A stretch of DNA of 64,000 nt, from assembly GCF_947495965.1 (NCBI RefSeq), contig NZ_CANMBB010000006.1, forward strand, positions 62,001 to 126,000, read 5' to 3'. The notes beneath the pieces were generated by a model. It did not search any database. It saw nothing but the letters and a program-made list of their open reading frames with translations, and was not told the origin of the DNA. Source of the stretch: an uncultured Maribacter sp. Lineage in GTDB: Bacteria; Bacteroidota; Bacteroidia; Flavobacteriales; Flavobacteriaceae. Position 1 is the stretch's first letter, and the number at the start of each line of letters is the position of its first letter. Of the stretch, positions 11,160 to 41,188 are shown one piece after another. Position numbers and translations under genes: made by a program.

Positions 11160-11939
11160 TTAGTCCATTATTATTTTAAACTGGTGTTTAAGACCATTAT
11201 ACCCATCTAAATCTGCCTTTATAGAACCAACTGCAATGTCTGCTTTTATTCTAATTGGTATTCTATTATCATCATTAGACACCCAAAGAGATAAACTTTC
11301 TTGCTCTTTAAATATTCTTCCTGACTGTACTAAAGGTCTAAATTTTAGACACTCTACCTTTCCGTATTTTGTCTTAACCACTTCTTTTCCAAGATACTTT
11401 AATTTAAAATTAAAAACACCGTCATCATCAAACAACATTTTTAATGTAATTGCTTCTCCTTTTACTAAATCTTGAACATTGTAATTGTTTCTAAGGTAAT
11501 AAAAAGCAGATATTAAATCTTGTATACTATCTTGAAGGTCAAAATTAAGCTTTTTCTTGTTCTTTTTATCGTTTAATAATGCCTTATCTTTCTTATAATC
11601 AAAATTTATCTCAACATCTTTCTTATAACCTCCCTCATTAATTTTACGAACAAAACGGTATGGCTTTCCATCTTTTTTATCAAAATAACTTTCATAGGTA
11701 TCATCCACTTTAAAAAATACACTTGCAAAACCTGTAGTTTCTCCATGAGCTACAACATGGTATACTGGTTTATTATTTATAGTACTATTTTTAACTTGTA
11801 AAGTGGCGTAACTAGCATTTAAAAAGCCATAATGCATTCGAAATTTAAGCCACTCTCCTGATTTAAATGAAGATTTTTGATTTTGTGCGTTACTAAATAA
11901 ACTTATGAATAAGAAAAATAAGAATATAATTTTTTTCAT
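11160..11939 (-). CDS. DUF3108 domain-containing exported protein
   Basis: 259 residues, with a signal peptide of about 18 residues (FFLFISLFSNAQ) and then an all-beta protein: FKSGEWLKFRMHYGFLNASYATLQV near the start and a conserved KYGKVECLKFRPLVQSGRIF late. This is the pattern of DUF3108, predicted periplasmic or outer-membrane proteins of unknown function related to lipid-binding beta folds. It is the first gene of the operon that continues with the tryptophan dioxygenase gene after 7 bases. The 320 bases upstream hold the candidate small RNA and the promoter region of this operon. Confidence 0.8.
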   Translation of the reverse strand: MKKIIFLFFLFISLFSNAQNQKSSFKSGEWLKFRMHYGFLNASYATLQVKNSTINNKPVYHVVAHGETTGFASVFFKVDDTYESYFDKKDGKPYRFVRKINEGGYKKDVEINFDYKKDKALLNDKKNKKKLNFDLQDSIQDLISAFYYLRNNYNVQDLVKGEAITLKMLFDDDGVFNFKLKYLGKEVVKTKYGKVECLKFRPLVQSGRIFKEQESLSLWVSNDDNRIPIRIKADIAVGSIKADLDGYNGLKHQFKIIMD

Positions 11940-12035
11940 AACCTAATAGTTGTTTAAAACATTAAAATTACTAATTAGTAGTAATAAATGTGTGTTAGTA
12001 ACAATTACTTAAACAAAATTTGTTCCAAAGTATTG

Positions 12036-12140
12036 TATAAAAAAAGCCCAGTTTTAAAACTGGGCTTTTCCTAAATAACCAACCAAACTTTAAATTATGA
12101 AAAACCAATACTTAAAGTTATAAGGGAACCACCCCTTATG
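12036..12140 (-). ncRNA. candidate small RNA with 5' hairpin and terminator
   Basis: A free-standing transcription unit is readable on the minus strand with no long frame. A promoter-like TTG (12176-12178), 22-base spacer and TACATTTG (12146-12153) point to a start near 12140. Exactly there begins a 7-bp stem (12133-12139 with 12120-12126). A single-stranded linker with TTTGGTTGGTTATTTAG (12087-12071) follows, then a perfect 28-base palindrome (12042-12069) with a T run, a strong intrinsic terminator. Expected size is about 105 nt. It lies between the patatin gene stop (12263) and the DUF3108 gene start (11939). Alternatively this is only the 3' untranslated region of the patatin transcript. 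Confidence 0.5.
12042..12069 (-). terminator. perfect palindromic terminator of the candidate small RNA
   Basis: Every base of 12042-12069 pairs (14 + 14 bases, core GCCCAG/CTGGGC), and the minus strand continues with T residues. It would also stop readthrough from the patatin gene. Confidence 0.85.
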
Positions 12141-12145
12141 CTATA

Positions 12146-12178
12146 CAAATGTAGTATATACTAGTTCTACAACAGCAA
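12146..12178 (-). promoter_or_regulatory. candidate promoter for the small RNA
   Basis: TACATTTG at 12146-12153 matches the Bacteroidota -7 box TAnnTTTG. A TTG at 12176-12178 lies 22 bases upstream, inside the 17-23 base range described for Flavobacterium; a second TTG is 16 bases away. Confidence 0.5.
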
Positions 12179-12262
12179 GCTTTAACTTACTTTAACTATT
12201 ACATTAACACTTATTGGTATTTAACCTATAATTTTATATTTTTTTTAAGAAAAAAGGGGTTG

Positions 12263-14512
12263 TTAAAACCAGTATCCTACACTTATAAACAGATTACTCT
12301 TTTTTACTTCTGGAGACCAAGAATACATTAATTGGATTGGACCTACGAAAGAATCTAAACCATACCCTATACCATAGCCAGAAAAATTTGGTGTCGTAAA
12401 CCATTCTCCTGTTCTAAAAATATCATCCTCGACATTAGAATAATTACATGCAAACATAAAATGATTTTTAGCTGCAAATTCATAGTCTAATTTTGCGTAA
12501 GCTTTTACAAAACTATTCCCTGGTAGGCTTAAAAAATCGTACCCAATAAAAGGAGTAAAACTATTAATTGTACTAGCCCCAAAACCTCCTAAAACAAAAT
12601 CGAAAGTTGATACTTTAGAAGTACCCAGTTTAAAACCTCCTTCTGTTTCTATATTTAGTGCTAAGTTTTTAATTATAGGAATAGCTACTCCTATTTTTGC
12701 TTTAGATATTGAAAATTCTTTAAAATTGTTATTATAGTCTGATGACCAAGGGTAAAAATGAAAATCGCCATTAAAATATACTCCTTTTTTAGGGAAATAT
12801 TTATTGTCATACGTATCATACGTTAATTGACTATAGGCACTTAAAAAAGTACTTTTTTCAAAAAAGGTTCTTCTATCTTTAGAATTTGCGGTACTATCTA
12901 TACTTGCGAGAGTTCTAGAGCTATATTTTATAAATTTATGTTCTACACCTAATGTAAACGCTAATTCGTCTTTTAAGACTGTTTGTACATATATTTGATT
13001 TGTTAAATCTGTTACATCTAAATTAATTCTATTAACATTAGTTATACCAGGAATATCATAATTTTCATTTATTAGACTAAAATCTATTTCTTCTTCAAAA
13101 GCATTGAATCTAGAGTTAACCCCAAAACTCCAATAACTACCTTTATCTATATAATACTGCATATTATAACGCACATTATCTCCCAAAATAAAATCAAAAG
13201 AAGCTACATCATCTCTTGTTAAAAAATTCTTTCTGGTAAGGTTAATTATTGCTGCACTTTTATAGAGATCGTCATAATGAGCTCCTAAACGAATAAAGGT
13301 TTTAGTCTTCTTTTCTTCTAAATTTAAAATGAGGTCTTCTCCAATGCCGTTTTCTAAAAGTTTATATCTATTTGTTTGAAAGTTTCCTGTTGCTGATAAA
13401 TTTAAAATTCCTTTTTGTAAGTCTGCAAAGGTTATTTCCTTACCTAAAGGGAATCTTAACTTCCCTTTTACATATCCTCTTGAATAATTATTATTACCAT
13501 CAATAATTAGTCTACTAATTATTAATGTATCCTTTATAGTTGTTTTAGAAATACCTTTTTTTCTAATTTTTTGATTAAACGCAATTGTTTTTAATTCCGA
13601 ATATTTTTGAATTGCAGCGGTTTCCCCAGTTTTTATAATTGCATCTCCTTCATTAAAATCTAACACAGAATACTCTCCTATTTTTGGTTTTATATAAATA
13701 GTAGTCTCTTCAGATTTTTTTTTCATGTCTGTAGCTACTCTAAAATTATTTATCTGTGATAAAATTTCTGTTGCAGAAATAAGTTCTTCTTTGCTAGATA
13801 AACCGTGTTGTACATCTACACCAATTACAACATTTGCTCCTAATTTTTTTACTTGATCTATTGGGTAATTATTTACAATACCACCATCTATTAACGTTTT
13901 ATCTCCTATTCTTGTTGGCTCAAAAAGGGAGGGGAGTGTACCACTAGCCATTATTGCTTCAGGTAAATATCCTTTATCTAAAATTACTTCTTCTCCCGTT
14001 TCTACATTTGTTGCAATACATACAAATGGTTTTGGTAATTTTTTAAAATCATTAATATCTTTTACATGGTACAATAGGCGTACCAACTCATTATAAATAT
14101 TTTGTCCTCCAGAATATGCAGCAGGAACTGTTATCTTAAATTTATTAAATGGTAATGTTAAAATATAACGCTCAGAATCTTCTTTTTCATAAAACGTTTT
14201 TGCACTTCTTGGTAAATTATCTTGAATAAAGCTCCCAAAATCTATATTTCTAAAAATAGAGTCTAACTCAGTGGCAGAATAACCCGAGGCATATAATGCA
14301 CCAACAATTGCCCCCATACTTGTACCGCTAATATAATCTACATGTACTCCTGCTTCTTCAATAATTTTTAATGCGCCAATATGAGCCATTCCTTTTGCTC
14401 CGCCACCACTTAAAACTAGGCCTACTTTTACATCTTTTTGTACTGCTAAGTTCTGCGCATTTACAAAAAAAGTAAATAATATTGCTGCTATTGTTATTAG
14501 TAACTTAGGCAT
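12263..14512 (-). CDS. patatin-like phospholipase fused to an outer-membrane beta-barrel
   Basis: 749 residues. A signal peptide (1-20, ending FVNAQ) precedes a patatin domain (about 28-230) with oxyanion motif GGGAKG (36-41), nucleophile elbow GTSMG (Ser65) and catalytic Asp in LIDGGIVNNYP. A POTRA-like stretch follows (about 310-380), then a BamA/surface-antigen-type barrel ending in VGYWF. The order signal-patatin-POTRA-barrel is that of type Vd (PlpD-like) autotransporters, so the lipase domain is probably displayed or released at the cell surface; whether it is cleaved is unknown. It follows uvrC by 11 bases and is probably co-transcribed. Confidence 0.92.
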   Translation of the reverse strand: MPKLLITIAAILFTFFVNAQNLAVQKDVKVGLVLSGGGAKGMAHIGALKIIEEAGVHVDYISGTSMGAIVGALYASGYSATELDSIFRNIDFGSFIQDNLPRSAKTFYEKEDSERYILTLPFNKFKITVPAAYSGGQNIYNELVRLLYHVKDINDFKKLPKPFVCIATNVETGEEVILDKGYLPEAIMASGTLPSLFEPTRIGDKTLIDGGIVNNYPIDQVKKLGANVVIGVDVQHGLSSKEELISATEILSQINNFRVATDMKKKSEETTIYIKPKIGEYSVLDFNEGDAIIKTGETAAIQKYSELKTIAFNQKIRKKGISKTTIKDTLIISRLIIDGNNNYSRGYVKGKLRFPLGKEITFADLQKGILNLSATGNFQTNRYKLLENGIGEDLILNLEEKKTKTFIRLGAHYDDLYKSAAIINLTRKNFLTRDDVASFDFILGDNVRYNMQYYIDKGSYWSFGVNSRFNAFEEEIDFSLINENYDIPGITNVNRINLDVTDLTNQIYVQTVLKDELAFTLGVEHKFIKYSSRTLASIDSTANSKDRRTFFEKSTFLSAYSQLTYDTYDNKYFPKKGVYFNGDFHFYPWSSDYNNNFKEFSISKAKIGVAIPIIKNLALNIETEGGFKLGTSKVSTFDFVLGGFGASTINSFTPFIGYDFLSLPGNSFVKAYAKLDYEFAAKNHFMFACNYSNVEDDIFRTGEWFTTPNFSGYGIGYGLDSFVGPIQLMYSWSPEVKKSNLFISVGYWF

Positions 14513-40036: not shown

Positions 40037-40182
40037 ATCACTAATTTAAGGGCGCAAAAATAGAACAAATTCTTTTGGAACACCTTAAACTGTTTAATAA
40101 TTAAAGATATAGCGGTTTTTTATTAAAAATTTAAACTTCTTAATGTTCTTAATAACAATCCATTAGGAATTATATAAATAAA

Positions 40183-40214
40183 AAACCGCCTTAAACATAT
40201 TGCTTAAAGCGGTT
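40183..40214 (-). terminator. terminator of the 40271-41188 lipoprotein gene
   Basis: AAACCGC-C-TTAA (40183-40194) pairs with TTAA-A-GCGGTT (40204-40214) with one mismatch, followed by T residues on the minus strand. It is preceded by the same 17-nt linker found in the candidate small RNA. Confidence 0.75.
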
Positions 40215-40219
40215 CTTAA

Positions 40220-40255
40220 CTAAATAACCAACCAAAAATTCTTGAAAGAGAATTT
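40220..40255 (-). repeat. second copy of the hairpin-linker element
   Basis: Reading the minus strand, a 7-bp stem (40249-40255 with 40236-40242) is followed directly by TTTGGTTGGTTATTTAG (40236-40220) and then the terminator at 40214-40183. The linker is identical over 17 bases to the one at 12087-12071. It lies in the 3' untranslated region of the duplicated-domain lipoprotein gene; no promoter box is seen between. Confidence 0.6.
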
Positions 40256-40270
40256 AATACTTTTCTCTTA

Positions 40271-41188
40271 TTATTTTATTTTTCTACTTCGTTTTACATG
40301 CATTGTGGGGTTCGAAGTCTTTTCTCTCTTTTTACTTACCGAGTTTTTACCCGACTTTAAGTACTGCTGATATCCTTTTCCTGTAAACTCATAAACCGTT
40401 TTACTATCTGGGTGATAAAGCTCTATAGTACTATCATTAATAACGTATAGTTCAAAGTAATCATTGCCCATGAAATCATATGCAAGTGTTAAAGTTTTAA
40501 GCGTTTCATCGTTTTCTATGTTATACACCTGATAATCTCCTTCAAAATCCCATTGTAATCTAGAAATAGAGGTTCCATTTTTATCTATAGAAGATCTAAA
40601 AAAGTCTGGTAAAAACTGTAAAAAATTCTCTTCATCAAAATCGTTTATAGCTCCTTCTTCACTAGTATAACTTTTTTCCCAAGCATCATACTCTTGTAAA
40701 AAGTAATTTATGTTATCATAAAACACATAATCATAATCAAACGTATCTGTATAATATCCTTTTAAAAAGTAAGATGTTCTAGATCCAGCATCATACAATT
40801 CTATGGTATTATTATTAACTGTAAGCACCTCTAATATCCAAGAACCATCCACAACATGATCTATATCTACCGCACCACTATAGCCGTCATAATAACCTAC
40901 AGGAATTCCAAAACCATTTCCTGTATTGCCAATACCTACAATATTATTATTAGCATACATTTTTCCATTTTTAAATGAAACTGTAAATGCTCTTTGTAAA
41001 AAAGGAACTTCGCCATTACCCTTGGTAGCATTAATATCTATATACCATAAGTCATAAGATTGTAACACCTGATTGGTGGTATAAATTGGCTCGTCTATAA
41101 ATTCATCTTCTATTAATACTTCTGCATAACAAGAAGAAAGTAAGGTTCCTACTAATATAAATCCCATAAGTAATTTTACTGCTTTCAT
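40271..41188 (-). CDS. lipoprotein with duplicated domain, function unknown
   Basis: 305 residues with a lipobox LLSSC (Cys20) and an acidic start of the mature chain. Two copies of an all-beta domain are visible: the first ends NNNTIELYDAGSRTSYFLKGY (about 139-159), the second NDSTIELYHPDSKTVYEFTG (about 252-271), each after a long strand-rich segment. A basic tail (KKREKTSNPTMHVKRSRKIK) closes the protein. Similar flavobacterial proteins have, as I recall, been mislabelled nicotinate-mononucleotide adenylyltransferase; there is no HxGH nucleotidyltransferase motif here, so that name is wrong. The duplication suggests a lipocalin-like or binding protein. Function unknown. Confidence 0.75.
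   Translation of the reverse strand: MKAVKLLMGFILVGTLLSSCYAEVLIEDEFIDEPIYTTNQVLQSYDLWYIDINATKGNGEVPFLQRAFTVSFKNGKMYANNNIVGIGNTGNGFGIPVGYYDGYSGAVDIDHVVDGSWILEVLTVNNNTIELYDAGSRTSYFLKGYYTDTFDYDYVFYDNINYFLQEYDAWEKSYTSEEGAINDFDEENFLQFLPDFFRSSIDKNGTSISRLQWDFEGDYQVYNIENDETLKTLTLAYDFMGNDYFELYVINDSTIELYHPDSKTVYEFTGKGYQQYLKSGKNSVSKKREKTSNPTMHVKRSRKIK

What the first reader, a model, noticed from the sequence alone, without database searches (positions are those of the whole stretch)
12036..12178. Candidate small RNA between the patatin and DUF3108 genes
Seen: on the minus strand a TTG-22-TACATTTG promoter pattern is followed at the expected distance by a 7-bp stem-loop, a U/G-rich unpaired linker and a perfect 28-base palindromic terminator with a T run. 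No protein frame runs through it. Known: Bacteroidota promoters use TAnnTTTG at -7. Inference: the unit encodes a free RNA of about 105 nt, and its linker (GGTTGGTT core) would be the pairing region.
Basis: partly seen in the sequence, partly recalled or inferred. Interest (0 to 1): 0.7.

Follow-up and report, generated by a model that had tools for sequence, protein, structure and literature searches.

The report
Conserved small RNA of Flavobacteriaceae bacteria
The stretch is almost certainly a real, independently transcribed small regulatory RNA gene that has been kept with little change across much of the bacterial family Flavobacteriaceae, but which messages or protein it acts on is still unknown.

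Summary
It is conserved in 8 of 8 genomes of the genus, 147 of 299 sampled over the family (weak matches included) and 279 of 298 of the genus of G342, inferred to be Flavobacterium. In a phylum sample all 21 matches (of 296 genomes) are in the same family. In 57 aligned homologs 27 of 28 core columns are invariant while terminator and 5' stem covary. A promoter box and an upstream direct repeat sit at fixed distances. The gene often lies between HPPD and DUF3108 (128 of 177 places), but DUF3108 has its own sigma54-like promoter and the RNA occurs without DUF3108 beside it: a free RNA, not a leader. No Rfam match. Function is inferred: antisense pairing at translation starts (modest support), or binding an unknown protein. 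The linker-terminator module recurs in a second RNA element of the window (40179-40272, -) and in a sigma54-driven sister family.

The parts
12181..12196 (-). Direct repeat GTTAAAGTAAGTTAAA, possible activator site (inferred)
   Evidence: GTTAAA-N4-GTTAAA (<=2 substitutions) in 58 of 70 homologs examined, 57 of them ending 34-36 nt before the end of the -7 box (6 further places without the GGTGGT loop, and L088 and L098, were dropped). 4 exact matches in the whole own genome, 6 for the reversed control.
12146..12153 (-). -7 promoter box TACATTTG
   Evidence: TAnnTTT[G/A] in 68 of the same 70 just upstream of the 5' hairpin. Exact TAnnTTTG 10-15 nt before GGTGGT in 60 of 78 places. Consensus TAnnTTTG of the primary sigma factor of F. 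psychrophilum in PMC9723704 (section 15).
12039..12141 (-). Small RNA gene, about 102 nt; start 12141 inferred from the published -12 to -5 position of the box, end in the T run
   Evidence: Covariance model R1: 123.2 bits (the window's sequence is in the model). Homologs.
12120..12139 (-). Hairpin 1, loop GUGGU
   Evidence: 6 of 7 pairs have a change on both sides in 57 homologs, 83.7% of cells paired in the outer and 94.2% in the inner part; UGGU invariant in 57 of 57
12086..12119 (-). Hairpin 2, which holds UUUUUCAUAA between its arms
   Evidence: 0 of 8 pairs have a change on both sides in A1, so covariation does not test it there. The Flavobacterium form has other arms (UAUAAA/UUUAUA, read by eye); the 5' arm is lost in L064, L067 and L078 (by eye).
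12076..12103 (-). Core TTTTCATAATTTAAAGTTTGGTTGGTTA
   Evidence: 27 of 28 columns invariant in the 57 sequences of A1, the other (A46) in at least 90%, apart from insertions of extra T. Forms outside A1 differ at a few positions: Flavobacterium AUUUAUAG and often GGUUAGUU, L064 and L067 CAUGA.
12042..12069 (-). Intrinsic terminator, perfect 28-base palindrome
   Evidence: 9 of 9 pairs have a change on both sides, 98.8% of cells paired. Scanner did not report it.
12013..12029 (-). Sigma54-like promoter of the next gene (TTTGGAAC...TTTTGT), not part of the RNA
   Evidence: TTGGAA-N6-TTG downstream of the RNA: exact in 58 of 76 places, <=1 substitution in 65 of 76; permuted control 9 of 76
11160..11939 (-). 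DUF3108 gene (neighbour)
   Evidence: PF11306, E 6.7e-63
40179..40272 (-). Second RNA element: hairpin, UUUUUGGUUGGUUAUUUAG, terminator; between gpsA and a SulP-family permease gene, 3' of ORF305
   Evidence: fold z -4.85; 3 of the 78 GGTTGGTTA sites of the own genome are followed by a terminator-like hairpin, this one, the RNA above and one inside a 341-codon open frame; same position in 6 of 6 genus genomes examined. Model R1 gives it only 20.1 bits, E 0.046.

Best explanation
It is a free, trans-acting small RNA gene of Flavobacteriaceae. Shown by comparison: a primary-sigma-type promoter box with a fixed upstream repeat, an RNA that would start at hairpin 1, a covarying terminator, and presence in some genomes without the usual neighbours beside it. 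Inferred: it represses several mRNAs by pairing its conserved 3' half (UUUUCAU in the loop of hairpin 2 and the open linker UUUGGUUGGUUA) with the A-rich start-codon regions (AACCAA...AUGAAAA) that these bacteria use instead of Shine-Dalgarno sequences. No Hfq or RRM_1 protein was detected in this genome, so pairing would be unaided or helped by an unknown protein.
For: Conservation. Covariation: 15 of 24 pairs with a change on both sides; 95.0% of cells paired against 85.4% in shuffles, 0 of 500. Box and repeat at fixed spacing. Downstream gene has its own conserved promoter motif. RNA with no DUF3108 found beside it: L060, L063, L068 (two copies), L071, L073, L125. Pairing: the 41-nt core pairs better with 318 start regions (-12.21) than with internal windows (-10.86); the difference -1.34 compares with 0.30, sd 0.45 for shuffles, 0 of 60 as low. 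In one relative 23 of 24 core bases are antisense to a start region (L022). No Hfq or RRM_1 in the own genome. Known Bacteroidota sRNAs GibS and FopS act at translation starts (PMC11697453, passages).
Against: No transcript was seen. Part of the start-codon signal is expected of any sequence that holds the complement of AUGAAA. Taken apart (shuffles of 60 as extreme on the difference / on the mean): loop half 5 / 8, linker half 4 / 19, hairpin 1 37 / 4. By count of strong duplexes 2 of 60 shuffles reach the whole core. Upstream 6-mers of the perfect site are not clearly above reversed 6-mers (633 to 588). TAACCAACC occurs 78 times in the genome against 63 for the reversed pattern. No long conserved target was found. 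The next gene's start is no special target (6 of 60). A 27- to 28-nt invariant run is longer than a usual seed (recalled).
Confidence: 0.5

Rival explanations
1. The RNA is a free sRNA whose conserved element is a protein-binding platform: UGGUU motifs in the loop of hairpin 1 and in the linker bind an unknown RNA-binding protein, which is either titrated or serves as chaperone for a class of sRNAs.
For: The same UUUUGGUUGGUUA linker next to a terminator recurs in RNAs with unlike 5' parts: the gpsA-SulP element and the sigma54-driven sister family. UGGU is invariant in the hairpin 1 loop of 57 of 57. The linker is mostly unpaired in the DUF3108-locus type (0.90). Neither Hfq nor RRM_1 was found in the own genome.
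Against: No protein partner is known. Predicted unpaired probability of the linker is lower in the sister family (0.46) and the gpsA element (0.62). Paralogous sRNAs can also share a pairing seed, as the FopS family does (PMC11697453, passages). GGTTGGTTA followed by a terminator-like hairpin is rare, 3 of 78 in the genome, one of them inside an open frame, so a large client class marked by this 9-mer is absent.
Confidence: 0.3
2. It is a 5' leader or attenuator of the DUF3108-TDO genes.
For: DUF3108 lies within 700 nt downstream on the same strand in 165 of 177 places.
Against: The perfect terminator covaries, and DUF3108 has its own conserved promoter motif after it. The RNA occurs with no DUF3108 found in the fetched stretch in L060, L063, L068, L071, L073 and L125.
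Confidence: 0.06
3. It is a processed 3' end of the upstream mRNA (patatin here, HPPD elsewhere).
For: Same strand and close upstream gene in most places.
Against: Conserved -7 box and repeat at fixed distance. The upstream gene differs between lineages (HPPD, patatin, UvrC, TDO) while the RNA stays.
Confidence: 0.04
4. Conserved DNA element or chance palindrome, no functional RNA.
For: The terminator alone is a common motif; many weak matches cover only the terminator part of the query.
Against: Near-invariant core plus covarying stems plus a promoter box over many genera.
Confidence: 0.02

Closest known systems
Rfp18 (and the other Rfp RNAs) of Flavobacterium psychrophilum, PMC9723704
   Same: Free structured sRNA described as widely conserved in Flavobacterium; our RNA has a model match in 279 of 298 genomes of the genus of G342, inferred to be Flavobacterium because its RNA has the form found in named Flavobacterium records. 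Rfp18 may be this RNA.
   Different: Identity could not be tested: sequence and coordinates of Rfp18 are in supplements that were not open to me. Its predicted pairing is in its 'third stem-loop'; in our RNA the third stem is the terminator.
Rfp36 of F. psychrophilum, PMC9723704 Table 2
   Same: RNA with a sigma54 (SM4) promoter, like the sister family
   Different: Sequence not available; not the window's RNA, which has a primary-sigma box
GibS / FopS sRNAs of Bacteroides (RF04319 for FopS), PMC11697453
   Same: Bacteroidota sRNAs; FopS is a multi-copy family with one conserved segment; act at translation starts (passages)
   Different: FopS model scores 19.2 bits against a cut-off of 56; FopS has a single-stranded 5' end, here the 5' end is a hairpin; its partner RbpB is an RRM-1 protein and no RRM_1 match was found here
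rteR (RF04181) and BTnc231 (RF04180)
   Same: Bacteroides sRNAs, the best two Bacteroides sRNA scores
   Different: 22.4 against 72 and 21.3 against 80.4 bits: below cut-off

Membership tests
Independently transcribed small RNA | own promoter | tested here: met
   -7 box in 68 of 70, repeat at fixed distance in 57 of 70; by conservation only
Independently transcribed small RNA | own terminator | tested here: met
   9 of 9 terminator pairs have changes on both sides; against: scanner found none
Independently transcribed small RNA | not coding | tested here: met
   no ORF of 60 aa or more; insertions of one or more T in the core between lineages would shift any frame; shorter frames not tested further
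Independently transcribed small RNA | detected transcript | not testable with these tools
   no expression data
Base-pairing trans-acting sRNA | pairs with mRNAs in trans | tested here: inconclusive
Hfq-dependent sRNA | Hfq in the genome | tested here: not met
   no PF17209 match in the own genome (99.75% complete); the control rings in 5 of 14 named genomes
FopS (RF04319) | score above the Rfam cut-off | tested here: not met
   19.2 against 56 bits
Any family of Rfam 15 | score above gathering cut-off | tested here: not met
   0 matches in the window
Cis leader of DUF3108 | found only in front of that gene and in its transcript | tested here: not met
   165 of 177 places have DUF3108 within 700 nt, but none was found beside L060, L063, L068, L071, L073 and L125; own promoter motif of DUF3108; co-transcription itself not testable
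Rfp18 | same sequence and locus in F. psychrophilum | not testable with these tools

The most novel reading that the evidence does not exclude
Flavobacteriaceae mark a set of small RNAs with one shared 3' module, UUUUUGGUUGGUUA just before the terminator, that is read by an RNA-binding protein of an unknown kind, which stands in for Hfq in bacteria such as this one, where neither Hfq nor an RRM_1 protein was found. The DUF3108-locus RNA, the gpsA-SulP element and the sigma54-driven sister RNAs would be clients of this protein with different 5' parts and different triggers.
Probability: 0.22. Interest if true: 0.85.

Novelty: new member of a known kind. Interest (0 to 1): 0.6.

Why it matters
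No match to this RNA is in Rfam 15, and in my seven searches of the paper library I saw one functional study of an sRNA in Flavobacteriaceae (Rfp18). An RNA whose core hardly changes over many genera points to a partner that cannot change: many mRNAs at once or a dedicated protein. It gives a direct handle on how sRNAs work in bacteria without Hfq, and the model R1 makes it easy to annotate.

Tried and rejected
Rfam, whole window at gathering score and the region at E up to 10: nothing above cut-off; the best raw score (STnc430, 28.0 bits, plus strand) is far below its cut-off of 47.

Pairing with 16S rRNA: best duplex -22.1, shuffle mean -22.1, 29 of 60 as low: rejected. One search was the same test, failed by a script error, and was re-run. 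23S rRNA was not tested.

Pairing with the start region of the next gene: 6 of 60 shuffles as low: no support.

A regulon of the upstream repeat: the exact repeat occurs 4 times in the genome (control 6), only the copy here has a -7 box within 120 nt downstream: no sign of a regulon of exact sites.

GGTTGGTTA as a general terminator mark: 3 of 78 sites against 2 of 291 for 60 sampled permuted 9-mers; in the same 464 kb 2 of 13. One of the three lies inside an open frame of 341 codons. No general class.

Rows dropped: before the 177 places, L098 (no true core) and those of L104-L126 that my core pattern missed (L107, L123, L124). The 177 places are not independent: 80 are named loci picked by one exact Flavobacterium-form string and several come from one genus or genome. 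Before the 70: L088, L098 and six places without GGTGGT (L059, L068 twice, L064, L067, L078). Before A1: L088, L093, L098 and identical forms, then 16 of 73.

The first whole-family BLAST search (142 of 299 at E <= 0.001) mixes true homologs with terminator-only matches; I used it to collect sequences. My downstream-promoter count with a wrong spacing (3 of 76) was corrected. Weak model hits L123 and L124 (42.7 and 43.9 bits) lack the core by my pattern and are probably chance or very distant.

Literature: searches. The letter-string search held 31 papers, of which 15 were listed; I judged them by title and start of abstract, and none is about an sRNA. Read: PMC9723704 (abstract, outline, section 15 part 1 and passages), PMC11697453, PMC5395568, PMC5069720, PMC9029176 (passages only). 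PMC5395568 lists candidate F. columnare ncRNAs in a supplement I could not open. I cannot say that the RNA is not in print.

Full report
Check of the observation. The fold is far better than shuffles (z -5.84, 0 of 200). The linker is not simply unpaired: AACUUUAAGU pairs with AUUUAAAGUU, so that UUUUUCAUAA is held inside a second hairpin, and only the stretch UGGUUGGUUAUUUAGG before the terminator is open. The tool's terminator scan missed the site, for a reason of its rule.

Conservation. All 8 genomes of the genus hold it. In three of them (G001, G002, G004) the BLAST match starts within a few bases of the predicted 5' end of the RNA, while the region upstream has drifted. Across genera the first 75 or so bases are 95-100% identical in many genomes, while the terminator changes sequence and keeps its stem. 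From 73 distinct sequences I aligned 57 (left out: 13 further forms close to the included ones and L064, L067, L078, which lack hairpin 1's loop and the 5' arm of hairpin 2). 27 of 28 core columns are invariant in 57 of 57, the other in at least 90%. With the structure written by hand, 15 of 24 pairs have changes on both sides, 0 of 500 shuffles reach the observed values, and sliding the partners destroys the signal. Hairpin 1 and the terminator covary; hairpin 2 has no pair changed on both sides in this set. The Flavobacterium form departs from this core at a few positions (AUUUAUAG, more Ts, often GGUUAGUU) and its hairpin 2 arms would be UAUAAA/UUUAUA (by eye), which fits pairing.

Distribution. 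With model R1: 147 of 299 genomes over the family at E <= 0.001 (many hits near 40-50 bits are distant forms and some may be chance), 279 of 298 in the genus of G342 at E <= 0.01, 72 of 393 in the order at E <= 1e-4 and 21 of 296 in the phylum at E <= 0.001; every listed hit of the last two is in the same family.

Transcription unit. In 70 homologs the -7 box is found in 68, and a direct repeat GTTAAA-N4-GTTAAA lies 34-36 nt before its end in 57. That is a fixed, activator-like position (inference); the regulator is unknown and the exact repeat is nearly private to this promoter in the own genome. Downstream, DUF3108 has its own element: TTGGAA-N6-TTG, which has the spacing of a sigma54 -24/-12 promoter, exact in 58 of 76 places and within one substitution in 65, against 9 for a permuted control, often starting about 10 nt after the RNA's T run.

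Neighbourhood. In 177 places DUF3108 follows within 700 nt in 165 and HPPD precedes within 700 nt in 135 (the places are not independent). A common order is HGO, HPPD, RNA, DUF3108, TDO; the window has patatin directly upstream and no HPPD or HGO match in its 64 kb. The RNA also occurs where DUF3108 is not found in the fetched stretch (L060, L063), and lies in other places in G030 (three copies) and G185 (two tandem copies after TDO). So the RNA is not tied to one gene.

Mechanism. Two readings remain. Pairing: the core is the near-complement of a flavobacterial start region (CTTTAAATTATGAAAAA). Against 318 start regions from a sample of the own genome it binds better than inside genes, beyond 60 of 60 shuffles on the mean and on the difference, while 2 of 60 reach it in the number of strong duplexes. 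Each half alone is only suggestive (difference: 5 and 4 of 60; mean: 8 and 19 of 60) and hairpin 1 shows no preference for starts (37 of 60; on the mean 4 of 60). Candidate sites include a TonB-dependent receptor gene (L007, site begins 26 nt before the start codon), secA (L004, 72 nt before it) and, in G006, a gene without Pfam match at its start codon (L022); none is shown to be a target. Protein binding: the linker plus terminator is shared by RNAs with unlike 5' parts. Of 78 GGTTGGTTA sites in the own genome three are followed by a terminator-like hairpin: one inside an open frame, this RNA, and a second element at 40179-40272 in the same window. The second element is at the same gpsA-SulP place in 6 of 6 genus genomes examined (G001 was not), and remains in G002, G004 and G006, where ORF305 in front of it is missing or reduced to a remnant. 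A sister family (14 copies in 10 loci examined) has the loop GUGGUUAC, the linker UUGGUUGGUUAGU and the terminator, and a sigma54-type promoter TTGGCAC-N5-TTG (<=1 substitution) in 12 of 14 copies, against 0 of 76 for the DUF3108-locus type. Neither Hfq nor RRM_1 was found in the own genome. I hold pairing at translation starts as the more likely because the characterised Bacteroides sRNAs work so (PMC11697453, passages), at about one half for the whole statement; that it is a free conserved sRNA I hold at above 0.9.

What is known. No Rfam family matches. F. psychrophilum has 85 newly named Rfp RNAs; Rfp18, described as widely conserved in the genus, affects two metalloprotease mRNAs (PMC9723704, passages and section 15). 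It may be this RNA; the sequences are in supplements I could not open. Hence 'new member of a known kind', with the caution that it may already have an Rfp number.

Noticed in passing
window 40179-40272 (-): Second RNA element with the same UUUUUGGUUGGUUAUUUAG linker and a terminator, between gpsA and a sulfate-permease-family gene; found in 6 of 6 genus genomes examined, also where ORF305 in front of it is missing or a remnant.
   Followed up: partly
L300, L301, L302, L304, L307, L308, L310, L311, L313, L316: Sister sRNA family with a sigma54-type promoter (12 of 14 copies), loop GUGGUUAC and the same linker; up to three tandem copies. No DUF3108-locus genes detected in these loci. By eye a 5' extension could pair with the segment before the core; single-sequence folds show this in some copies only.
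   Followed up: partly
window 12013-12029 (-) and homologs: Highly conserved sigma54-like promoter motif in front of the DUF3108-TDO genes.
   Followed up: partly
177 places: Common order HGO, HPPD, RNA, DUF3108, TDO (aromatic amino acid breakdown genes); the window has no HPPD or HGO.
   Followed up: partly
L071, L073, L125 (G030); L068 (G185): Dispersed or tandem copies of the RNA with no DUF3108 found beside them; the G030 copy in L073 lies near gpsA, like the window's second element.
   Followed up: partly
window 12263-14512 (-): Patatin-like phospholipase fused to an Omp85-superfamily domain (PF01734, PF19143).
   Followed up: no
own genome G000: No match to Hfq (PF17209) or RRM_1 (PF00076).
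   Followed up: no
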